Below are positions 1 through 24,881 of a stretch of 64,000 nt of DNA, in pieces. Where the stretch lies: positions 1 through 64,000 of the forward strand of contig JADEYG010000015.1 in assembly GCA_016906335.1 (NCBI GenBank). Reading direction: 5' to 3'. How positions within the stretch are numbered: position 1 is the stretch's first letter; every line of letters starts with the position of its first letter. The DNA is from Novakomyces olei. Its lineage: Eukaryota > Ascomycota > Novakomycetes > Novakomycetales > Novakomycetaceae. The translations under genes and the position numbers were made by a program. A model generated the notes under the pieces. It made no database searches, was not told the origin of the DNA, and worked only from the letters and a program-made list of their open reading frames with translations.

Positions 1-92
1 AACCCTAACTAACCCTAACTAACCCTAACTAACCCTGACTAACCCTAACCCTAACTAACCCCTAACCCTGACTAACCCTAACTAACCCTGAC
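1..92. repeat. Telomere repeat tract
   Basis: Near-perfect 10-base repeats AACCCTAACT (GGGTTAGTTA on the other strand), with interspersed AACCCTGACT units (GGGTTAGTCA) and a few slipped units. The C-rich strand reads 5'->3' from base 1, as expected at the left end of a chromosome. GGGTTAGTCA is the repeat known from Yarrowia lipolytica. The mixture suggests a related or variable telomerase template. Confidence 0.95.
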
Positions 93-340
93 ACAATCTT
101 TCTTTCAATTACTCTCCTTTTTCAACCTTTTTTTGCCAAAATCTACATAAATCTATTCCCATTTTCTACTTCTATTTCCCATCTCAACTCCAACTCTCTC
201 CATCCTTTTCTTTATCCAACAATCTCAACAAATTTCTCTACTCCACTCCCTGATAAACAACCCTAACCCTAATAAAACAACTTCCTCATACATTATAATA
301 CCACATACATTATCCCAATAATTACCCCTAACCCTAACTG
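93..340. other. Telomere-adjacent C/T-rich spacer with two telomere-like scraps
   Basis: No gene. The DNA is rich in C and T on this strand and contains two short AACCCTAACCCTAA-like scraps near 260-275 and 317-332. Confidence 0.6.
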
Positions 341-1170
341 AACAAATCTCATACATTATGCCCCCATACATTAATGCCCATACATTAATTTACCATACAT
401 TATTCCTCTATACATTATTCATCCATACATTATTCATCCATACATTATTCCTCCATACATTAATGCCCATACATTAATTTACCATACATTATTCCTCTAT
501 ACATTATTCATCCATACATTATTCATCCATACATTATTCCTCCATACATTATTCCTCCATACATTATTCTACCATACATTATTCTACCATATATTATAAT
601 ACCATACATTATAATGCCATATATTATTATACCATACATTATAATGCCATATATTATTCTACCATACATTATTATACATACATTACTTTACCATACATTA
701 TTCCTCCATACATTATTCTACCATATATTATTATACATACATTACTTTACAATACATTATTTTACTATATATTATTATACCACACATTATTATACATACA
801 TTATTCCTCCATACATTATTCCTCCATACATTATTATACATACATTACTTTACAATACATTATTATACCATACATTATTATACATACATTATTCACTTTA
901 CAATACATTATTTTACCATATATTATTATACCACACATTATTATACATACATTATTCCTCCATACATTATTCCTCCATACATTATTATACATACATTACT
1001 TTACAATAACTTTACAATACATTATTCTACCATATATTATTATACCATACATTATTATACCATACATTATTATACATACATTATTCCTATACATTAAATT
1101 ACCATACATTATTATACTATACATTATTATACATACATTGCTTTACAATAAATTATTCTACTATACATTA
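341..1170. repeat. AT-rich minisatellite, ATACATTATT core
   Basis: Tandem units of about 14-16 bases of the form CCATACATTATTCCT, with variants ending in TATAC, TTTAC or AATG. Higher-order doubling is visible (for example 400-480 resembles 480-560). The open frame across it only translates the repeat. A short outlying block of the same motif occurs at about 2446-2535. Confidence 0.9.
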
Positions 1171-1439
1171 TTATAATGCCACATAAAATGCATCCTGCGC
1201 CGTCATGAGCTTTTTATAAATCTTTAAACCCATATATCTCCATAATTACTAATCCAATCTTGTAAACAAGTATATATTTACACTCCTACTGCACCCCTCT
1301 ATCCAACCATACACTTTTTGTAAAAACACTTGTTCATTCGACGTTTTGTCACCTCTACACATGGACTACACACTCTTAATTTTTCTTATTTTTCTGACGT
1401 TTTTCTTATTATACTTTATTACTATGGGGCTCTCTCTAT
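1171..1439. other. AT-rich subtelomeric spacer
   Basis: No gene or clear repeat. The last part (about 1410-1440, TTACTATGGGGCTCTC) is duplicated near 1920-1945, marking the left edge of a repeated subtelomeric unit. Confidence 0.5.
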
Positions 1440-1905
1440 AATATTTTTATTATATTATCAGATAGCTATAATATGTGTAGACCATCTTGTATAATAATTA
1501 TATTTTATAAATTCAGCAACCCTACCCTCGCCGCAATATGGTTTGCCAATGTTTTGGAATTAAGGCGGAAACTATTTTTGCTCTTACGTCGTTCTTACCC
1601 CCGTTTATGCCAATTTCCTTAGCATTCCCGCGCAATTTCCCATATTATAATTTGGAATTTAGTCGGAAAATTCTCCCTAAAAAACCCTGCCTCCACGTTT
1701 CTCCTACCATTCTTATTAGAATTACGCCATAATTCGCGGGAATGCTAAGGAAATTGGCATGACCCCCCCCTCATACATTAATTATTTTTCGAAATGGAAT
1801 TATGGCGTAAAGGAAAAGCGAAAACCCTGACTAGAATTATACATAATAAGAATCGCATTACATAAAAATGGAATTTCGCCATAATTCCGTCTTGAATATA
1901 TCTAG
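1440..1905. repeat. Subtelomeric foldback unit A
   Basis: Composite repeat. It starts with a TATTATATTATCAGATA-like segment and a CAGCAACCCTACCCTCGCCG segment, followed by two stem-loops. Stem 1 pairs 1607-1632 perfectly with 1735-1760 (26 bp). Stem 2 pairs 1796-1807 with 1877-1888 (12 bp perfect). The stems are joined by ATGACCCCCCCCTCATACAT. Each loop holds AAACCCTG. Related units occur near 2.1, 6.9, 7.2, 10.4, 16.5 and 24.7 kb. Confidence 0.8.
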
Positions 1906-2360
1906 TTTTTCTTATTATACTCTATTACTATGGTGCTCTCTCCATAATAACTATATTATATTATCAGATAACTATACTATGTGCCATGTGCGATGCAATA
2001 ATATTATTATTTATAATATACCCTTACCCTACCCCAAGCAATGGCTGTGATGAATTTATCAAAAATCCACAGCCTATCAATATTTCGTCGATATGTCAGC
2101 TTGCGCTACTGTATTATCCAATAGCATCGCTGTATTCAGCGATATTTCGTCGAAATGTCGCAACTTTTTTAGGGGAACTTTTCGCAGTTTAATATATGGC
2201 AATCCACTAGCGCCTTGCGACATTTCGCCGAAATATCAGTGATAGGGTTTTCTCGAATTTTAGACATAATGCAATTATTATACAAAAAAAATAATACCAG
2301 CTGACATTTCGTCGAAATGTCGCTAGTAATAATAGCTAGGCGTAATGCGCGCTGGAATAT
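1906..2360. repeat. Subtelomeric foldback unit with GACATTTCG palindromes
   Basis: Starts with the same TATTATATTATCAGATAAC segment as the neighbouring units. It then carries four palindromes built on GACATTTCG/CGAAATGTC: about 2085-2100, 2138-2161, 2217-2237 and 2303-2321 (the last perfect). An AGGGTTTTCTC core lies at about 2243. It ends at GGAATATGTA, a boundary shared with other units. An inverted relative lies at 16470-16700. Confidence 0.75.
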
Positions 2361-2718
2361 GTACGTCTTGTATAATAATTATAATTTATAAGTTCAGCAA
2401 CCCTACCCTCGCTGCAATATGGATTGCCAATGATTTGGAATTAGGGTCCTCCATACATTAATCCTCCATTTATTAATCCTCATACAATAATCTTCATACA
2501 ATAATACTCCATACAATAATCCTCCATACATTATTGCATAACTTGCGCATTACTTATAAAATTGCTCTCCATACTATAGTTATAGTTGAATAAATTCGTG
2601 ATGCCACACTCGACATATAATAGGTTTCAATTCATAAATTTTCCATTATATCTATGAATCCTGCATACGTTGAATCACATATTAATACAATAAATGAAGA
2701 TAAATTAGATCCAACAAA
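2361..2718. other. Partial repeat unit and spacer downstream of helicase
   Basis: 2361-2450 repeats the TCTTGTATAATAATTATA...CAACCCTACCCTCGC segment of unit A. 2446-2535 holds a few CCATACATTAAT units. The rest, up to the helicase stop codon, shows nothing recognisable. Confidence 0.55.
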
Positions 2719-5271
2719 CTACTTTTGTTCCGCCATTTTGGTTGGCCTGTCATTGCTGAAATACCAATGCACGAACTTTACACCCGCTATTTGTGTGGGA
2801 CCGATTGTGATTTGACCGGCCCACAATAAGCATGCTGTGCCTTTGGCCGGTAAAGCTTCACCAGTCCAGGTTTTTAGTTTGTCTTTCATTTCTAATTTTT
2901 CGTGTGCTAATTCAAATATAGTAAATAACGATGGCATGATCTTGTCTGAATATTGACATTGCCGTTCCTCTTTCTCAAATGCCGTCCGACATATTGTTTG
3001 AGGTAGGTAGCACCGATAGCAAACGCTCCCAGATTTTATCCAATTTCGCTGATTTGCTTTCAATACTGTTCTTTTGGCGTCCAAGTACAAAAACTTTATC
3101 CTGTTCCGGCATTGGCCAAAGCCGTGTGAGTACTGACTAGCACCGGAAAGGAGACACAAAACACATTTGTCTGAAAGATAAAGCATTAAATTGTGAATAT
3201 CTTCAGCAATTATGATGTTCGACCGATCTCTCTGTAACACGGCTTGTCGACCATATCGGCAATCGGGCTGCCTCTCGTTTGCTTCAGCCCGGACCTTGCG
3301 GCGCTTCGACATCTGACATAAGTCACAATGATTCTCGTCCGTCTGACATCGCGCTAAGTCTTCATCATAGTCGTTGAAATATCTGTCTAGTACTAATCTC
3401 CTGCACTCTGTTTCATGTACATATCTTCTCAATGGTTTCTCCATTGTGCTTAGATCATCCTCACTAAATATGATTAGGCTCTCGGCTCTTCTGCCATCTC
3501 TTCCAGCACGTCCTGATTCTTGGAAATAGTCTACCAAACTGTAAGGCGCTTTGGCATGCACAACCAGTCTCACATGTTGGAAATCAACACCAGTTCCAAT
3601 AGCAGTCGTTCCAACTAATACTTTGCTTTTCTCACCTAATATCCACCGATTTATTATTCCAGCCTTCTCAGCAAAGCTAAGCTTTGATGTTATGCAATGC
3701 GCACGACTAGCAATAGCAATTGTTTCGGCGTCTGACTTTGTTCTTGCGATACACATTACGCGATCATCTTCATCTTTGAATTCAAATTGTTTCAGAGTAT
3801 TTATTACTTCGGACTGTAGTGCTCCAGTAGCTTGCCTCGCTTTGTAAACAATGTTGTGTCTACGACATCGTACTTTAAACCAAGTCGGATTCTCTAGCAC
3901 AAAATGGTCTATAAATTCGCTCCTTTTGCACGGAGGAAGCGTTGCCGACAAGAGCACTATTGGTACATCCAATAGTCTTAAACTAGGTATTTGTTGAATT
4001 GCCTTTCTGTATGACGTAGTAAATGCCAAATGGCATTCATCGACTACCAATCGATCAAGAATTCCTCTTTGGCGTAAAAGTGTTAAATATTGCCGTCCCG
4101 AGTCCGACACAGCTGTCTCCACCGACATCAAGGTTAAGCGATAAAACTTTTGCGGCGAATCATTCGCGGTCCATATTCCAGTGTCGATCCCCACTAGTTT
4201 GGACCGACGTTCCACATCAATCATCAACGCCACAAATGGTAAAACCATCACTGTGCATGAAGCTTGCGGCAAGCAAGCTGCAACCTGGATTACACATGTC
4301 TTTCCAAACCCAGTAGGAAATACAATAACTATTTCCTGTACCTTTCGGGCAACTGCTACAATAGCATCCGCCTGTATTGCAGCACGGAATTCAAAATCAG
4401 AACCAAACAGCTCTTTTGCTTTTCTAAATGCATTCTTTTTCAGTTGACCAATGGAGACTTCCAAATCTTCTGGTACTGCTTTAGTATTTTCGATCTTGTC
4501 CGTAGCATGAATATATTGTTCAGACATTTTGAAGAAATCCGCCCATGACTGACACGCCTTCCAACTATGGTTGAGCCAAAGATCAGCCGTATTCTTCAAA
4601 CCGCTACTGTTTCCGTACATTGTACTGTGTGTTGCGACACTGTGATTCGATAGGTGTATTAAATTGACAGCATTATGAGTCATAGTAAGACCTTCATCAT
4701 CGTCACTGTTGTCCTCAACGTCTGCGATGTGTTTTGAGAATTTGACATTTATAATGGACGAAGCAATCTGCCGCCAGGCAGATATTGACAACGTTGGAAC
4801 ACTTGCATGTGCGCAAGACTGCTCGAAGTACCGAGAAAGGCACTTACCGTCCCATTCCTTTCCATGTGACACAAATAATGCCGTTTGAGATAGTGCGTTC
4901 CCGAGGACACCCTGTAAGTATTCAGTAAACGGTTGAATATAAATCAAATAATTCAGAACCAAGTTCCCCACTTCGTGAGTTAGAAACCGTGCAAGGACTC
5001 GCGGGCGCCCAGTAATGTTTTGTGTTTTAGTATAGGTTGTATATACTAGCATCTGTCCATCTTTAATAAATATATTTCGCCCTCTCCTTCCATTTCTGAA
5101 CCATATAGTTATGGTTTCCGTACCGCGCAATGGGGGCGCTGATATTGTTAATAGTGTCCATATCCATCGCAAAAATGTGTGTACCGCAGCCAAATACCGC
5201 GCAATGGCTGATTTGTCCCAGTCTCCTGTTCCGTTATGAAAATAAGTTGTTAGACGTGTATTTGATTGCAA
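2719..5271 (-). CDS. Telomere-linked RecQ-type DNA helicase, C-terminal part
   Basis: ATP-dependent helicase of the subtelomeric RecQ family. Seen: motif I FPTGFGKT near residue 325, DECH box near 412, LLSATLPP near 442, and QESGRAGRDG near 585. A Cys-rich tail (about 670-760, with CLLSG and CYRC) may bind zinc. Upstream of the helicase core, residues 30-170 contain PPLRGTE and a fold-like stretch common in fungal telomere-linked helicases, possibly derived from a tyrosine recombinase. The listed start is a TTG. The frame is open upstream to about 5320 and clearly continues the protein encoded at 5291-6829, so this is one gene broken by a frame change. It is transcribed toward the telomere, as is usual for such helicases. 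Natural substrate and role are inferred only. Confidence 0.85.
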   Translation of the reverse strand: MQSNTRLTTYFHNGTGDWDKSAIARYLAAVHTFLRWIWTLLTISAPPLRGTETITIWFRNGRRGRNIFIKDGQMLVYTTYTKTQNITGRPRVLARFLTHEVGNLVLNYLIYIQPFTEYLQGVLGNALSQTALFVSHGKEWDGKCLSRYFEQSCAHASVPTLSISAWRQIASSIINVKFSKHIADVEDNSDDDEGLTMTHNAVNLIHLSNHSVATHSTMYGNSSGLKNTADLWLNHSWKACQSWADFFKMSEQYIHATDKIENTKAVPEDLEVSIGQLKKNAFRKAKELFGSDFEFRAAIQADAIVAVARKVQEIVIVFPTGFGKTCVIQVAACLPQASCTVMVLPFVALMIDVERRSKLVGIDTGIWTANDSPQKFYRLTLMSVETAVSDSGRQYLTLLRQRGILDRLVVDECHLAFTTSYRKAIQQIPSLRLLDVPIVLLSATLPPCKRSEFIDHFVLENPTWFKVRCRRHNIVYKARQATGALQSEVINTLKQFEFKDEDDRVMCIARTKSDAETIAIASRAHCITSKLSFAEKAGIINRWILGEKSKVLVGTTAIGTGVDFQHVRLVVHAKAPYSLVDYFQESGRAGRDGRRAESLIIFSEDDLSTMEKPLRRYVHETECRRLVLDRYFNDYDEDLARCQTDENHCDLCQMSKRRKVRAEANERQPDCRYGRQAVLQRDRSNIIIAEDIHNLMLYLSDKCVLCLLSGASQYSHGFGQCRNRIKFLYLDAKRTVLKANQRNWIKSGSVCYRCYLPQTICRTAFEKEERQCQYSDKIMPSLFTIFELAHEKLEMKDKLKTWTGEALPAKGTACLLWAGQITIGPTQIAGVKFVHWYFSNDRPTKMAEQK

Positions 5272-5290
5272 TAGACGAACGAGCCAGTTT

Positions 5291-6829
5291 TCATGTTCTT
5301 TTAAATAAATAATGTTTGTTTTCAGCTGCTATCCCAAACCAGTAGCCAGGCTGTGAAATATGAATTAAATCACGAAGAGATTTTGTCGAAAGAAATTTGT
5401 AGTTGATTCCAAACAAAAGACTGTCGCTTAAAATTCCGTAGGCTGCCAAAACTGCGCGTTTGTATAAAATTGTGATTTCGGCCATTCGTAGAGAACTTCC
5501 TCTGTAAGAGACTTCTCTCTCTGCAATATCCCAGGTACATTGGTGCGGATTAACATAATATTTTGTATACTGAAAAAGATAAGCTCTCCAATTAAGAAGA
5601 ACTCCAACCGCAGTACTTCTTGATGGGTTGAGAAACTGCTCAACTAAAATGTCCAAGTTTGAACTAGCCTCTCCCGGCTGCGAGCAAGCCTCTTCAAACA
5701 AAGTTAATTGAGCGCAGTAAATCAATCCAGATAATATCGTATTAAATCCATTAGGCGGTTTCCAGCCTTTTGAAGCATCTCCTTGATATAAATAAGCACA
5801 TGATGCACAAAAGCTTAAGAGTGCAGAATCAAAATCGTTGTTTTTAATTGGTTGTTTTAAAAGATATAAACCAATATAAAAAAGAAACCGTCGCGCAGTA
5901 TCAAATAGACCAGCTTTGATTGCAAGTACAGTCCCCTCGACATTAGCCCTTTGAGCGTCGTCACAGTTCAACATCAGTCGAGTAATGAAAAATCGAATTG
6001 CCTGAGCCCAGTACGAAAAATATCTTTTCTTAGTCGCAGGTAAAGTTGTTCGTCGAAAGTGGCGCACTCGTCCAGAATTGTCCGGCACAAAACTACTCAG
6101 TCTAGTCGCCATAGCTGAAGTCATTTTCATATTGCTTTCATCAAATATATTGTTATATAAAAGCTCGATTTGTTCATCAATACTGTCAAGCACTGTGGAT
6201 TCGAAATTGCTCAGGTTTTCCGTTTGTAAACAGACTCGATCAAACCCAAACTTCGTGACCCACGGTGGAATGTCTCTTTGATCGACATCACTTTCTGTTG
6301 CAGCACTGGGAAGGGTTATAAGGGTCTTTTCCAAGAACTTTCCTACAACGCCCTCCGCGGCTGAATTTGAGCTTGGTTTTAAACCATCTTTCGCAGCAAC
6401 ACGAAAATATTTCAGAAATTGATTCTCTGTAAAACAAGTTTGTAGGGGTGAACAAACAATATGATCTTTTGATGTTCGAACAGTATGTTCTTTTGAGATA
6501 TGCTGCTCAATGACCTTTCGCGATGTTGAAGCAGCATCATAGCAAAAACTGCAGTAGTAGCCTTGGCAAACCTTTAGAAATAATAACGGTTCAACCACTT
6601 CACGCAGGCTCGGCGTGCTCCAATATATATTCAAAACAGGAGCGATATTCACGTCGTTTGCATTAATTACAGAAAGTGCAATTTGAAGTTCAGTTGACTT
6701 TAGCTTATGCGCCTGACGCAAATGCCTTTCGGCTGCGTTGGTTCCAACCTCGACCTTTACGCATGCCCGACAAGCCTTGCAAGCAACTACCTTTAAACCA
6801 AAGGCCTCCTCGATTCCCAAGTACTCCAT
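5291..6829 (-). CDS. Telomere-linked helicase, N-terminal zinc-finger part
   Basis: 512 residues from a good ATG. Two Cys2-His2-like fingers are visible: CKACRAC...HLRQAH at about residues 18-44 and CSFC...HISKEH near 94-114. These resemble the OrsD/DUF3505-type N-terminus that precedes RecQ cores in fungal subtelomeric helicases. The end of this frame reads QPGYWFGIAAEN and runs directly into the next frame over a run of four A bases near 5300-5303. Removing one A would place both parts in a single protein of about 1,375 residues. It is therefore either a true pseudogene or a homopolymer sequencing error. No intron with GT...AG ends explains the break. Confidence 0.7.
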   Translation of the reverse strand: MEYLGIEEAFGLKVVACKACRACVKVEVGTNAAERHLRQAHKLKSTELQIALSVINANDVNIAPVLNIYWSTPSLREVVEPLLFLKVCQGYYCSFCYDAASTSRKVIEQHISKEHTVRTSKDHIVCSPLQTCFTENQFLKYFRVAAKDGLKPSSNSAAEGVVGKFLEKTLITLPSAATESDVDQRDIPPWVTKFGFDRVCLQTENLSNFESTVLDSIDEQIELLYNNIFDESNMKMTSAMATRLSSFVPDNSGRVRHFRRTTLPATKKRYFSYWAQAIRFFITRLMLNCDDAQRANVEGTVLAIKAGLFDTARRFLFYIGLYLLKQPIKNNDFDSALLSFCASCAYLYQGDASKGWKPPNGFNTILSGLIYCAQLTLFEEACSQPGEASSNLDILVEQFLNPSRSTAVGVLLNWRAYLFQYTKYYVNPHQCTWDIAEREVSYRGSSLRMAEITILYKRAVLAAYGILSDSLLFGINYKFLSTKSLRDLIHISQPGYWFGIAAENKHYLFKRT

Positions 6830-6889
6830 GACTGAGTATATCTGTTCAAGTCTTTAATTACTACTAGAAACATGCTGTAATCTATTTTC
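6830..6889. other. Short 5' region of helicase gene
   Basis: AT-rich, no clear promoter element assigned. Confidence 0.3.
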
Positions 6890-7214
6890 GATATAATGCG
6901 AATCTTATTATTAATAGTGTGAATTTCCTTTCCGTCGTCGCGATTTTTACCATATATTAACCTGGAATTATGCAGTAAAATCTACCCTCGAAAACCCTGT
7001 TTGACTATTTGTTATTCAATTCTTATTAGAATTACGCCGTAATTCGCGACGACGAGCAGCAAATTCACATGACCCCCCTCCCATACATTAATTAATTTTC
7101 AAACTGGAATTACGCCGTAATTCTACGTAGAACACCCTAACAAAAAATATAGCTAATAAAAACTACGATACATATATTTCGAATTACGGCGTAATTCGCG
7201 CAGGAATATGTATA
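6890..7214. repeat. Subtelomeric foldback unit B
   Basis: Two stem-loops as in unit A but with different arm sequences. Stem 1 is 6919-6942 with 7045-7068 (paired at both ends, unpaired in the middle). Stem 2 is 7107-7123 with 7181-7197, each arm itself nearly palindromic (GAATTACGCCGTAATTC). The joining segment is ATGACCCCCCTCCCATACAT. The cores are GAAAACCCTG near 6990 and ACACCCTAAC near 7133. It ends with GGAATATGTATA. Confidence 0.75.
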
Positions 7215-7373
7215 GGAAATTGGCATGACCCCCCCCCCTCATACATTAATTATTTTTCGAAATGGAATTATGGCGTAAAGGAAAAGCGAAAACCCTGACT
7301 AGAATTATACATAATAAGAATCACATTACATAAAAATGGAATTTCGCCATAATTCCGTCTTGAATATATCTAG
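7215..7373. repeat. Second copy of the right half of foldback unit A
   Basis: Nearly identical to 1749-1905: the visible differences are the length of the C run (10 versus 8) and one G/A change. It contains stem 2 (7264-7275 with 7345-7356) but lacks the left partner arm of stem 1. This indicates a recent partial duplication or conversion. Confidence 0.85.
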
Positions 7374-7378
7374 AGCCA

Positions 7379-7915
7379 TTGCCAGAGCACAAAGGAAACA
7401 GTACGAATTGGTCGTCGACCATGACACCTGCCGGGACATTTACAAACGTCCACATTGACCCTGTGGCGTACGGCAGTGTTATATTTGGGATATCAGGAAC
7501 GAAGGTAGTGCTGATGTGGCCTCCTACAGAAGTGAATCTAAGAACTTACGAGGAATATCATCGCTCTACTCAGGGTCGGGTCATACCAAGACACCTCCCT
7601 ACGCTTAAGAGCCTCCATTACAGTGTTTTGAGGAAAGGGATGATGTTGAATATGGAACCGGGAACGCTTCACGCGGTTATCGCTGTCTCGGACAGCTCGT
7701 TACTTGGATACAACTATGCCGCGAAGGACTGTGAATGCCTTCAGCGAGTGGTCGACTGGGAAGCCAAGTTAGCCCAGAAGAGACCAGGGATCAAAAGCGC
7801 GGTGATACAGGAACACCGGACTATGGTGGATTTTTACAGAGAGGTCTACGGGACGGACCTACCAGGGACAGCGAAAAGAGTGTTGTCGGGACTTACTCTC
7901 TTGGAGGGGGAGTAA
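7379..7915 (+). pseudogene. 5'-truncated JmjC-domain protein
   Basis: About 178 codons of a JmjC-type cupin fold. Visible: STMTPAGTFTNVHIDP carrying the HxD iron-binding pair, KVVLMWPPTE, and the distal histidine in MEPGTLHAVIAV. Members of this family are Fe(II)/2-oxoglutarate oxygenases. No proper start is present: the frame is open to the left edge, where a foldback repeat ends at TATATCTAG, and recognisable JmjC sequence begins immediately. The first ATG (7421) falls inside the domain. The left half of the gene was therefore lost when it was joined to the repeat. The TAA stop directly abuts a possible LTR beginning TGTCAGGGG. Whether a short cupin is still made is unknown. Confidence 0.7.
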
Positions 7916-8232
7916 TGTCAGGGGTTGCTTAGAAAGGTGCTGGGAGCACTTGAATAAGCAACTTCGTAGTTTAGTTAGTTAGTTTATTTAGTTGTATTGT
8001 AGGAAGTTGCTTAGAGTAGCGCTTGGAGCGCAGACTCTAGCACTTCTGCAATAAGTTAGTTACTTTAATAGTTTCGTAGAGTGGGATCTTCGGCAAGTAA
8101 CGAGCCGAGCCCAAGTATAAGAAGAGGAGTTCTTCTACTGGGTTCGGGGCGTTACAACAACCAAGGTTCCGCTTAATATAAGTGTCTTGAGATTAGTTCT
8201 TCTATCTGCCTATCCTTTGCTACTCCCTGTCA
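7916..8232 (+). repeat. Possible solo LTR, TGTCAGGGG...CCCTGTCA
   Basis: 317 bp bounded by TG...CA, directly preceded by a purine tract (GGAGGGGGAG) like a polypurine tract. It contains two diverged direct repeats of about 75 bp starting TTGCTTAGA (near 7925 and 8006). No second copy is seen in the window, so the LTR call rests only on end sequence and context. Confidence 0.35.
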
Positions 8233-8242
8233 AGGCCAACGT

Positions 8243-10157
8243 GTGATCTTGGCCGACTTAAGATTACTTTGTATTGAGTCACCCCCTAACATAGAGCTTA
8301 TCAGCCCAGGAAATCAACCTGCGCGAAAAAGAAAAACGTCATCAGAGCAACTAGGAGACGAAAAATTCAGAAAAATAGACCCGCTGCAGGAAATCCTTTC
8401 TGGTGAAAGAAAATTAAATCTTGAAGGGATCTCCAAAGAAAAATTGAAGAAAATCCTTTCCCCCCTTTTCCTTAAAAATGGTCAAAGGAAAATATTAAAC
8501 AGACCCAAAGGAGGCGTTAATCACATTGAAGCTCCTGACATTGAGCCTCAAAATTACAATGAAGCCATCACTGGGCCATTTGGGAATCAGTGGAAAGAAG
8601 CAATAAATAAAGAACTAAAAGCAATGGAAAGAAATGAAGTATGGAAAGTCGTTTCCCAATCACAAAATATACGTACAGTTGGATGCAGATGGGTGTTTAA
8701 ACTGAAACAAGGAGAACAGTCGAATGAAATAATTAGAAAAGCAAGACTAGTAGCACAAGGGTACTCACAGATTTTTGGAAAAGACTATGAAGATACATAC
8801 GCCCCAGTCGCTCGTCCTGACAGCATACGGTGGTTATTAGCTTACAGCGTAATTAAAAATTATGAAATCTATCAAATCGACGTGGATACAGCCTTCCTAT
8901 ATGGTACACTAAAGGAGTCAGTGTACATGAAAAAACCCGATGGAGTGAAAATTAAAAAACCCGGCCTTGTCCTAAAATTAAACAAAAGTCTCTATGGTCT
9001 CAAACAGGCACCAAGATCGTGGAACAGTGAACTGGATTCTACATTGACAAAATACGGTCTAACAAAATCAAACAAAGATTCTGCCATATATTACAATGAC
9101 TCTTTAATTATTGCTGTCTACGTAGATGACCTCATGATCGTCGAAAAACAGAAAGGAAAGAGACTTGAATTTGAATCCTTTTTGAAAACATTTTACTCCA
9201 TCAAGTCACTTGGAAAAATAAAGAGATATCTTGGTATGGACATTACATATGACCGCGACAAAGGAATACTCAAATTGTCACAGTCACAATTTGCTAAGTC
9301 AATTATACGCACTTACGGAGACACTAACCTAAAATACATAAGTCAGCCCATCACAAACATCAATTCACTCTATCATCCCGCGGATGAAAATTATGATTGT
9401 CTGGAAATCTATCCAACTATTATAGGAAAATTAATATATTTGACTGAATGGACAAGACCAGACCTCAGATTTGCAATAAGTATGTTAAGCAAACATACAA
9501 AAAGACAAAATGAAGAACAAATACAGGCCTTAAAACACACCATGAGATATCTAAACGCTACACTGGACACATGTATCACCTACACTAGAGAAAATGATCT
9601 ACAGATACACTCGTGGGGCGACTCTGATTTCGCCGGAGACACTTGCGACAGAAAATCCCGATCAGGATACGTTGTCTCACTAGGAAAAAATAACGGCCCA
9701 ATAGCCTGGAACTCGCAAAAGCAAAAAATTGTAACACCAAGTACAATGATGGCGGAGTTCGAAGCTATGAAACTAACAGTCAATCAAGCCTTGTACTACA
9801 AATATCTAATGGACGAAATTAATAAAGGGCCCGATAACATCCCAATCGTCTACTGCGATAACAACGCCTGCATATTACTTGCAACTAATGGTGGAAACTA
9901 CCAGGGTTCAAAACATCTAAGTAACACCTGCTACTATGTGATGGATATTGTGAGAAATGGACTGGTAAGCATACAGAGATGCCCCTCACGAAACATGAAG
10001 GCAGATGGATTGACCAAGAACCTACTTGGAAACAAATTCACTAAATTTACAAAAATGCTATACAATGAAGAATAACAAAAAAAAAAATAAATACAAGAAT
10101 ACAAAAAGGAAATAAAAGATTCAAGGGGAGTGTTGAAATATGAATCTATTATCCCCT

Positions 10158-10195
<38 letters not shown>

Positions 10196-10408
10196 ACTCG
10201 CCGACTCACTGACCGGCTAAGACAACTCAACCATGAGTGTCAGTTGTTTGACTTTTAGCTTTACAGAATACTCACTCAAAAATACATAGTTACATATATA
10301 TAGCTCAAGCGAACCCTCACACCCTCGGGGGATTCAGCTGAAGCAATCTAGAGTATCTAATTCATTTAATCTACCATAAGAGCAAATTCCAACCTTCTAT
10401 ATTCAACA
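8243..10408 (+). mobile_element. Ty1/copia retrotransposon fossil (RT-RNase H part plus 3' LTR)
   Basis: Copia-type reverse transcriptase with RWVFKLK, LYGLKQAPR and YVDDL, followed by RNase H (GDSDFAGD, near the end of the frame). A purine tract AAGGGGAG lies just before the 3' LTR at 10131-10408. Only the 3' portion of the element is present: no gag, protease or integrase part and no 5' LTR were found, so it is a broken fossil. The reading frame over RT and RNase H is still long, which argues against great age, but without paired LTRs the age cannot be estimated. A diverged relative of its LTR lies at about 22790-22975. Confidence 0.9.
10131..10408 (+). repeat. 3' LTR of the copia fossil
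   Basis: 278 bp starting TGTTGAAATATGAATC and ending TTCTATATTCAACA, so the ends form an inverted TGTTGAA/TTCAACA. An (AAT)11 microsatellite lies at 10159-10193. A TACATATATATAGC segment in the middle may be the TATA region. Confidence 0.85.
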
Positions 10409-10862
10409 TATTATATTATCAGATAACTATAATATGTGTAGCACATCTTGTATAATAAATATATTATATAAATACAACAACCCTACCCTTGCCGCCATTC
10501 TCTGCCCTGACATTATGCTGTAATCCTGTTTCGATCTGACGCTCTTTTTATAGCCTCCAGCCTCCACTGTGAATTACCTTAACATACCCGCGCTTTTTCC
10601 CATACATTAACGGCGCATTATGCAGTAAAATCCGTCCCTGAAAACCCTCCCTACAAATTTCTACTGCATTTCTTATTTACATTACGCCGTAATTCGCGCG
10701 TATGTTAAGGTAATTAGCATGACCCCCCCCTCATACATTAATTTATTTTTTGGACCGCATTACGCCGCAAAATCAAACCGAAAACCCTGTCCAATTTTCA
10801 ATGCTATAATAATCACATAACAAATTATTGATTTTGCGGCGTAATGCGCGCTGGAATATGTA
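10409..10862. repeat. Subtelomeric foldback unit C
   Basis: Begins TATTATATTATCAGATAACT and contains CAACAACCCTACCCTTGCCG as in unit A. Stem 1 pairs 10572-10592 with 10695-10715 (20 of 21). Stem 2 pairs 10756-10774 with 10830-10848 (19 of 19). The joining segment is ATGACCCCCCCCTCATACAT. The cores are GAAAACCCTC and GAAAACCCTG. The end is GGAATATGTATA. The copia LTR ends exactly where this unit begins. Confidence 0.8.
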
Positions 10863-11003
10863 TAAGTAATATCAACCGTTCGAACTTCAACATAACTTCA
10901 ATTAATTCAACAAAGATTATTATATAGACCGTTCGAACAATATATCCAACATCAATAATTTTAACACAAAAGCTTAGTTTTATAAATATTTTTTTATTTT
11001 AGA

Positions 11004-16227: not shown

Positions 16228-16469
16228 TGTAGATTTAGTGCTCCAGCAGTCAATCAAGACCCCCAGTTAAGCTGACAGCGGTCGAACTGACATGGGCAAG
16301 GGATCAATTATTCAATTGTATAGGCTGGAGGCGTTATTGAAAATCATTACCAGGTTTTTCTCTACTGGAAATATAACCTGCTTCGTTTCTGACGATTTGA
16401 AGACGGAATGAGTGACGAGGTGATGTCGCAGGAAGTGTTTAGCAATCTTTCAAATTGAAAGACACGGCT
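16228..16469. other. Short spacer
   Basis: No gene or repeat recognised. Confidence 0.35.
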
Positions 16470-16700
16470 ATCTATTATTGCTAGCGACATTTTGATGTAT
16501 GTCAAGACTGAGAAAACCCTTATCACTGATATTTTGGCAAAATGTCAGAGCGCGCTAGTAGATTACCCATATATTAAACAGCAAAAAAAATCACTTTCGC
16601 AGCAATATCAATGAAGGAGACATTCTATTGGATAAAACGGCAGGGCTAGCTGACATTTCGCAGCAATATTGATAGGTTGAGGATGTTTTATGAATACATA
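16470..16700 (-). repeat. Inverted, diverged copy of the GACATTTCG foldback unit
   Basis: The reverse complement matches about 2170-2345: TTTAATATATGG, CACTAGCGC-like, AATATCAGTGATA and GGGTTTTCTC appear in order. The palindrome at 16528-16546 (GATATTTTGGCAAAATGTC) differs from its relative at 2219-2237 at two symmetric positions, so pairing is kept. A GGAATATGTATA boundary motif lies nearby at 16849. Confidence 0.65.
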
Positions 16701-16895
16701 TAGATTTCATTCATTGCCTTTAGGGCGAGGGTATATATTTATAAAGATCATATTGCAAAGTGCATTTGCATATTTTATATTTATTTGATAATAATATACT
16801 ATAGATATAGCCTACCTGAATAAATATCCGTCTTGACTTAAGTCCAGGAATATGTATAGAATAAATGTAGTCGCCGGCCGCATACACGACCGTTG

Positions 16896-24529: not shown

Positions 24530-24881
24530 ATATCTATAAACTGAGTTGAGCGGCTTAATTACAATTATTTTACAACTCTTCGTTTCCACTTCTCTCTATT
24601 TATTATTTGTATTCATTCTTCAATGTTTTAATAAAGCAATAAACTCCCCTTAACCTCACGCCACGGATCGCAGAGGGCTATGCGTTTATTTTCGAATTTA
24701 TAATCATAGCGTGAAGGAAAAACCGAAAACTCAGACTATATTTCTACATAACTAGAACCACACTACATAAAGACCGAAATTCGCCACATGAATATATATC
24801 TCGGCTATAAGGACGCAGACCTAAGATAATCGTGTCCTGGTTTTATTAAACCGCGGAACAGAGTTTAGGTCGCGTTCGCCG
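24530..24881. repeat. Intergenic region with a worn foldback-unit remnant
   Basis: 24685-24800 resembles the right half of unit A (1780-1905): TTATTTTCGAATTTATAATCATAGCG, GTGAAGGAAAAACCGAAAA, CATAACTAGAACCACA and GAATATATATCT in order, with many changes. The stem is largely lost. The remnant lies within the presumed promoter of the following gene. Confidence 0.5.

What the first reader, a model, noticed from the sequence alone, without database searches (positions are those of the whole stretch)
1440..10862. Family of foldback units whose stem arms change together while an AAACCCT core stays fixed
At least three units (near 1.6, 7.0 and 10.6 kb) each form two stem-loops joined by ATGACCCCCC(C)TCATACAT. 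The arms differ in sequence between units, yet each pairs with its own partner (26/26 bp at 1607/1735, 20/21 at 10572/10695, 12/12 at 1796/1877, 19/19 at 10756/10830). Each loop keeps AAACCCT, the telomere repeat core. Arms that differ between loci but still pair suggest that pairing itself is maintained, by selection on a transcript or cruciform, or by a copying mechanism. This could be a non-autonomous foldback element, an end-protection or origin element, or a structured RNA.
Basis: partly seen in the sequence, partly recalled or inferred. Interest (0 to 1): 0.78.

Follow-up and report, generated by a model that had tools for sequence, protein, structure and literature searches.

The report
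Chromosome-end caps with hairpin inner ends
In a fungal genome, small DNA units that can fold into hairpins mark the inner edge of the blocks that cap chromosome ends, and that edge is joined at the same base to many different sequences, as if ready-made caps had repeatedly been fixed onto broken ends.

Summary
The window is a fungal chromosome end. Three diverged unit types (A 1435-1905, C 6860-7215, B about 10408-10866) each form two stem-loops whose arms change together; a fourth type (D) supports the second stem. The linker occurs 55 times in the genome, control 0.

The new point is the unit's inner end. All 31 A copies listed, five of them strongly truncated on the other side, run to the same base...GAATATATCTAG|. 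Types B and C run to ...GGAATATGTATAG| or a near variant. What follows varies: 34 distinct flanks in held DNA, noisy duplicate contigs dropped. The second stem ends 17 or 18 nt before the join. Where an uninterrupted target is held by a strict match, the base before the join is G in 19 of 19. Of 53 unit ends on nine large contigs, 50 lie within 45 kb of an end and 51 point inward.

I read the units as structured inner ends of chromosome-cap elements, some carrying a RecQ-type helicase gene, joined one after another to broken ends. The joining enzyme, and whether an RNA or a DNA end is used, is not shown. Pairing alone does not prove an RNA.

The parts
1..89 (+). Telomere repeats, AACCCTAACT with AACCCTGACT variants
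90..1434 (+). Outer part of the first cap: leader (90-349), CATACATTA minisatellite (350-1172), spacer shared with other ends
1435..1905 (+). Unit A; 31 full or nearly full copies in held DNA, 25 once noisy duplicate contigs C8, C13, C14 are left out
1607..1632 (+). Unit A stem 1, left arm (pairs with 1735-1760)
1735..1760 (+). Unit A stem 1, right arm
1796..1807 (+). Unit A stem 2, left arm
1877..1888 (+). Unit A stem 2, right arm
1889..1905 (+). 17-nt tail GTCTTGAATATATCTAG; 1905 is the exact inner end
1906..7215 (+). Second cap: D unit, RecQ-type helicase gene on the opposite strand, C unit; its outer end is cut by the A cap
1906..2364 (+). D unit, with dyads like TTTCGTCGAAA spaced 62, 78 and 84 bp
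2719..5271 (-). Helicase ORF (DEAD, Helicase_C; RecQ_Zn_bind below its cut-off)
5291..6829 (-). ORF with an OrsD domain, probably the N-terminal part of the same helicase gene in another frame
6860..7215 (+). Unit C: stem 1 6918-6942/7045-7069, stem 2 7106-7126/7178-7198 (18 of 21 paired), tail to 7215
7216..7373 (+). Outer-truncated A unit, keeps the TCTAG inner end
7374..10407 (+). Retroelement-like stretch: an ORF without a Pfam match (7379-7915), LTR-like sequence by inspection, and an RVT_2 reverse transcriptase ORF (8243-10075)
10408..10866 (+). Unit B: stem 1 10568-10592/10695-10719, stem 2 10756-10776/10828-10848, tail 10849-10866
16847..16859 (+). Isolated unit tail GGAATATGTATAG beside a diverged D-like unit on the opposite strand (about 16390-16819)
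24693..24801 (+). Degenerate A-like relic beside the flavodoxin-like gene; loop and tail recognisable, stem lost

Best explanation
The units are the structured inner ends of a family of terminal cap elements. When a chromosome end is broken, an enzyme that recognises the stem-loops joins the unit's end, 17 or 18 nt beyond the last stem (...TCTA(G) or ...TATA(G)), to the broken DNA at a site that reads A-H-G or similar. The chromosome thereby gains the unit, the block lying outside it (minisatellite or helicase gene) and telomere repeats. Later breaks inside the cap are healed the same way or by telomerase, which leaves the layered, outer-truncated copies seen in this window. Shown: stem-loops, co-changing arms, exact inner end, many different flanks, G at the testable joints, near-uniform orientation. 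Inferred: that the targets were broken ends, that an enzyme reads the stems, and that the events are joinings rather than ordinary recombination. Open: whether the joined end is an RNA 3' end copied by a reverse transcriptase or a DNA end moved by a nuclease (the first two rivals are these two routes within this reading).
For: All 31 A copies listed run to TCTAG; their right flanks fall into 25 different sequences. Over all unit types, 48 tails in held DNA give 34 distinct flanks after dropping C8, C13, C14 and flanks under 40 bases: 24 A-type, 7 C-type, 2 B-type, 1 other (35 if tail type is counted too). For 20 an uninterrupted target is held by a strict match; one is the locus itself. In the other 19 the base before the joint is G each time; -2 is A in 12, -3 is A in 15. 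Random positions in the same 20 targets give on average 3.0 joints with one or more matching bases, at most 10 in 20,000 draws. The flank matches its target from the first base, so no base was added at these joints. In those 19 the other half of the target was not found cut off on the outer side: 10 gave no hit reaching the joint, 8 gave only uninterrupted repeat copies, 1 matched telomere repeats. TTGAATATATCTAG occurs 43 times and GGAATATGTATAG 20 times in the genome, reversed controls 0. Of the 53 of these 63 on nine large contigs, 51 point inward and 50 lie within 45 kb of an end. Outer-truncated copies lie stacked, each keeping its inner end. Stems covary; a deep relic has lost its stem.
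Against: No joining enzyme was identified. RVT_1 gave 85 matches in this genome, not classified one by one; one lies beside the telomerase-domain matches on C1. Helitron_like_N gave none, but its control also rang nowhere. With a looser target match the base before the joint is G in 20 of 25; of the five others two are weak matches, one is the noisy duplicate of the same locus, and two start at the third base, one of which (C4:1489853) has an exact G target. For 14 of 34 flanks the strict match found no target. The A at -3 does not match the unit's own T, so simple base-pairing does not explain the target. Three unit ends break the rule: a facing pair on C7 at 1.836 Mb and one on C4, 153 kb from its end. 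For the test of the lost half, the outer DNA held was short at several right ends (0.8-1.8 kb). The joints come from a single assembly.
Confidence: 0.7

Rival explanations
1. RNA-templated capping: a transcript ending in the two stem-loops and ...UAG-3' is bound by a reverse transcriptase and copied onto the 3' end of a broken chromosome, as in Drosophila HeT-A or telomere-associated Penelope-like elements (recalled); telomerase or recombination then completes the end.
For: Fixed end; 1 to 3 matching bases at each of the 19 testable joints; outer (5'-like) truncation and stacking; a 3'-terminal hairpin at a near-fixed distance.
Against: The helicase gene would be antisense in such an RNA; no added oligo(A) at the joints; no suitable reverse transcriptase picked out, though the RVT_1 matches were not classified; A at -3 of targets is not explained by pairing; non-Watson-Crick pairs in stem 1 are not rich in G.U (2 of 7).
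Confidence: 0.3
2. DNA strand transfer: a nuclease or transposase that reads the hairpins and dyads cuts after ...TAG and joins this end to A-H-G sites, with replication carrying over everything out to the telomere (one-ended transposition, as proposed for some HUH-type elements; recalled).
For: Target preference A-H-G (16 of 25 against a mean of 0.8 and at most 6); hairpin at a near-fixed distance from the end; whole blocks with an opposite-strand gene share the same inner end; dyads ATTWCGNCGWAAT 64 sites against 10 in the control.
Against: No transposase or Rep-type protein found, but only Helitron_like_N was searched for, with an uninformative control; the element has no recognised second end.
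Confidence: 0.4
3. Ordinary subtelomere recombination: homologous exchange and break-induced replication spread blocks among ends, and the unit is only a passive block edge.
For: A units are about 98-100% alike between ends; some joints are shared by several ends; S. pombe subtelomeres are mosaics of shared segments (PMC7840980, passages).
Against: Homologous exchange does not create 34 different flanks at one base of the unit, with G before each of the 19 that could be tested strictly.
Confidence: 0.15
4. The arms stay matched only through template switching between the arms at the DNA level (quasi-palindrome correction, recalled), without any selection on the structure.
For: Arms are perfect or near perfect in A stem 1 and B; mismatches show no wobble bias.
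Against: The second stem sits at a near-fixed distance from the joined end in three types; the relic at 24.7 kb has lost its stem, as expected once selection ends, but this is one case.
Confidence: 0.25

Closest known systems
HeT-A/TART/TAHRE telomeric retrotransposons of Drosophila (recalled; only listings seen)
   Same: Elements stacked at chromosome ends in one orientation, exact inner end, outer truncation, joined to non-telomeric broken ends
   Different: No gag or non-LTR reverse transcriptase seen in the caps, no oligo(A) joint, telomerase-type repeats present, structured end, target preference A-H-G
Fungal telomere-linked RecQ helicase regions and FoTeR telomeric retrotransposons (PMC12857005: abstract, sections 19 and 20)
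   Same: RecQ-type helicase genes next to telomeres, truncated copies, mobile elements at the same ends
   Different: FoTeRs encode a reverse transcriptase and are bordered by telomere-type motifs; here the tested joints are not telomeric and the end is a hairpin unit
Yeast Y' and X subtelomeric elements (recalled)
   Same: Helicase-bearing block and core element at many ends
   Different: Y' blocks adjoin telomere-type repeats and spread by homologous recombination; here the inner end is base-exact on many targets
Helitrons and other HUH elements (recalled)
   Same: Hairpin shortly before a CTAG-like end; one-ended events possible
   Different: No Rep protein found (control uninformative); the helicase is RecQ type; types B and C end in ATAG; targets are not A|T

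Membership tests
HeT-A-like terminal retrotransposon | Exact end attached to various chromosome-end sequences in one orientation | tested here: met
   51 of 53 tails
HeT-A-like terminal retrotransposon | Element or helper encodes gag and non-LTR reverse transcriptase | tested here: inconclusive
   none seen among the ORFs of the window caps; 85 RVT_1 matches in the genome were not classified
HeT-A-like terminal retrotransposon | Oligo(A) added at the joint | tested here: not met
   strict targets match the flank from its first base; 1 of 34 flanks begins AAA
Foldback or MITE DNA transposon | Two fixed ends, with both halves of the target beside the element | tested here: not met
   0 of 19 joints show the target's other half cut off on the outer side; outer DNA held is short in several
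Helitron | CTRR 3' end and insertion between A and T | tested here: not met
   CTAG only in type A; the first flank base is G 14, A 12, T 6, C 2 of 34
Helitron | Rep-helicase protein in the genome | tested here: inconclusive
   no Helitron_like_N match, but the control rang nowhere either
Telomere-linked RecQ helicase region | RecQ-type helicase gene near telomeres | tested here: met
Structured RNA family known to Rfam | Score at or above a gathering cut-off | tested here: not met
   0 matches in the window; 7 weak matches in 1190-2460, all below the cut-off
Structured RNA | Transcript exists | not testable with these tools
   no RNA data

The most novel reading that the evidence does not exclude
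A so far undescribed end-healing system: a hairpin-ended cap element, linked to a telomere-adjacent RecQ-type helicase gene, that is joined to broken chromosome ends at A-H-G sites by its own recognition end, so that fungal telomere-linked helicases belong to a mobile chromosome-capping element rather than being passive subtelomere genes.
Probability: 0.4. Interest if true: 0.88.

Novelty: new variant of a known kind. Interest (0 to 1): 0.7.

Why it matters
If the reading holds, this genome keeps a readable record of successive chromosome-end repairs, each layer marked by an exact joint. It would give a concrete role to test for the RecQ-type helicase genes that sit beside telomeres in several fungi, and add a second way, besides telomerase repeats, by which a cell can cap a broken end.

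Tried and rejected
A known RNA family: none at gathering score in the window; the microRNA-type matches in 1190-2460 are weak and what a long hairpin can give. Covariation inside the A family: not testable, since the stem-1 arms do not vary in 31 copies; apparent block changes in contigs C13 and C14 look like indel noise and were not used. A simple-foldback reading was dropped when no two-sided insertion was found. A first stitching of loci used the wrong strand, and its position list was discarded (corrected). That the joint is only 1-3 bases of end homology was kept open but weakened by the A at -3. One literature search by telomere sequence did not identify the species; protein matches (best 120 of 7,996 listed) point to an ascomycete with no close relative in the list. 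Paper searches mostly gave capped lists (for example 20 of 821 papers); among the titles and abstract openings listed I saw no description of such units. One paper search was rejected for its wording and not repeated.

Rows dropped before counts: contigs C8, C13 and C14 and flanks under 40 bases; the 10 of 63 tails on C8, C10, C13 and C14. In one search the matched 'target' of C3:1635 was a telomere joint on C2; the intact gene copy also gives G, with T instead of C at -3.

Full report
Setting. The window is contig C15:1-64000 of a 14.34-Mb, 15-contig genome. It begins with telomere repeats AACCCTAACT/AACCCTGACT. Its genes look fungal (Fungal_trans and Zn_clus factors, sugar transporters).

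Observation. Units A, B and C are about 69-72% alike. In a three-way alignment I tested 25 pairs of stem 1 and 21 of stem 2 against shuffles of the 3' letters among the three types: stem 1 has 13 doubly changed, still paired comparisons (mean of shuffles 4.0, p 0.0001), stem 2 has 11 (4.4, p 0.00085). A covariance model of stem 2 also found the D core at C1 right, whose arms pair 19 of 21 plus one G.U; with it the count is 26 against 8.1, and 0 of 20,000 shuffles reach it. Limits: few lineages; the structure was defined from the same sequences; the arms of C and D are near-palindromes themselves. The units carry copies of a dyad, ATTWCGNCGWAAT (TTACGCCGTAA in B and C, TTTCGTCGAAA in D, altered in A), in C and D 74-84 bp apart where listed; the genome holds 64 such sites against 10 for the reversed pattern.

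The inner end. In one search every one of 31 listed A copies continues to TCTAG and then into its flank. The 31 flanks fall into 25 different sequences: helicase gene pieces, retroelement pieces, the inside of another A unit, other DNA. Five of the 31 are strongly truncated on the outer side and still keep this end. Of eight C copies, seven end at TATAG or GTGTAG by exact match; the eighth, in noisy contig C14, has the same end after a missing base. Removing noisy duplicate contigs, short flanks and identical flanks leaves 34 distinct flanks of 48 tails, or 35 if the tail type is counted too. For 20 an uninterrupted copy of the target is held; one of these is the locus itself. In the other 19 the target base before the joint is G each time; at -2 it is A in 12, C in 4, T in 3; at -3 it is A in 15. 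Random positions in the same targets give on average 3.0 of 20 joints with at least one matching base and at most 10. A looser match gives G in 20 of 25, and 16 of 25 A-H-G against a mean of 0.8 (at most 6 in 20,000). The base after the joint is G in 14, A in 12, T in 6 and C in 2 of 34. The joint lies 17 nt beyond the second stem in A, 18 in the window's B copy, whose tail has one extra A, and 17 beyond the last stem column in C, where the outermost pair is a mismatch.

Two-sided insertion was tested. For the 19 joints I looked for the 150 bases before the joint in the outer DNA held at the same end, up to 12 kb. Ten gave no hit reaching the joint base, eight gave only uninterrupted repeat copies that run on into the same flank, and one matched telomere repeats. 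No target is seen split around the element, though little outer DNA was held at some ends.

Place and direction. The A tail occurs 43 times in the genome and the B/C tail 20 times, with no site for the reversed patterns. Of the 53 on nine large contigs, 51 point away from the nearest end and 50 lie within 45 kb of an end. The exceptions are a facing pair on C7 at 1.835-1.836 Mb and one on C4, 153 kb from its end. Ends C5 left and C7 left show telomere repeats but no unit in their first 10 kb; the first tails listed there lie at 26-32 kb.

Reading of the window, from the telomere inwards: telomere 1-89; A cap 90-1905; helicase cap with D and C units 1906-7215; a 158-bp outer-truncated A 7216-7373; retroelement-like pieces to about 10407; B unit to 10866; then other DNA. 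On C9 left four joints follow one another in the first 3 kb. Deeper relics lie at 16.8 kb (a tail) and 24.69-24.80 kb, where loop and tail are recognisable but the stem is gone. I read this as a record of successive end repairs.

Mechanism. A fixed end on many targets, near-uniform orientation, and truncation on the outer side fit a specialised joining of the unit's end to broken DNA. Two routes remain: copying an RNA whose 3' end is the unit, or transfer of a cut DNA end. The short homology at the joints favours the first. The A-H-G target, the opposite-strand helicase gene and the movement of whole blocks favour the second. Homologous recombination alone explains neither the exact end nor the G. 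The enzyme is unknown: 85 RVT_1 matches were not classified, one lies beside telomerase-domain matches, and the Helitron search was uninformative.

Literature. In Fusarium, telomeric retrotransposons (FoTeRs) lie with telomere-linked helicase regions at the same ends, with telomere-type motifs at their joints (PMC12857005: abstract, sections 19 and 20 read). S. pombe subtelomeres are mosaics of shared segments with tlh genes (PMC7840980: passages). The listings, most of them capped, showed no title or abstract opening on units such as these; most subscription papers are not in that library. Statements on HeT-A, Penelope-like elements, Helitrons, HUH elements, Y' elements and quasi-palindrome correction are recalled.

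Verdict. The units are better described as hairpin-bearing inner ends of chromosome-cap elements.

Noticed in passing
G000:C7:1835091-1836546: Two A-like units with D pieces face each other far inside the largest contig, as two chromosome ends fused head to head would. The sequence between them was not read.
   Followed up: partly
L032 (C2 left) 1-150 and L033 (C3 left) 1635: At C2 left the telomere repeats sit on the helicase gene at the same base at which an A cap is joined at C3 left, so one break point carries two kinds of cap.
   Followed up: partly
L033 (C3 left) 9740 and L039 (C9 left) 2784: A C-type and an A-type tail are joined to the same base of an A unit at two different ends.
   Followed up: no
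L037 (C7 left) 1-130: Telomere repeats pass directly into a retroelement-like stretch; RVT_1 matches follow at C7:2385 and 6695.
   Followed up: no
C8, C13, C14: Short contigs that look like noisy near-copies of C7 right, C12 right and C15 left, from matching unit layouts and many single-base gaps.
   Followed up: partly
C15:1316307-1315850 and C4:1497667-1497209: Another unit type (E) with the same head and a related tail, a different core and an internal tract of telomere repeats.
   Followed up: partly
window about 7917-8294; C4 about 1484.2 kb: LTR-like stretches beginning TGTCAGGG or TGTTAGGG and ending CCCTAACA, like telomere repeats, by inspection.
   Followed up: no
window 350-1172: A minisatellite of CATACATTA units; the same word stands in the linker between the two stems.
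   Followed up: no
window 2719-6829, - strand: The helicase gene is split between two reading frames near 5271-5291; frameshift or intron was not decided.
   Followed up: partly
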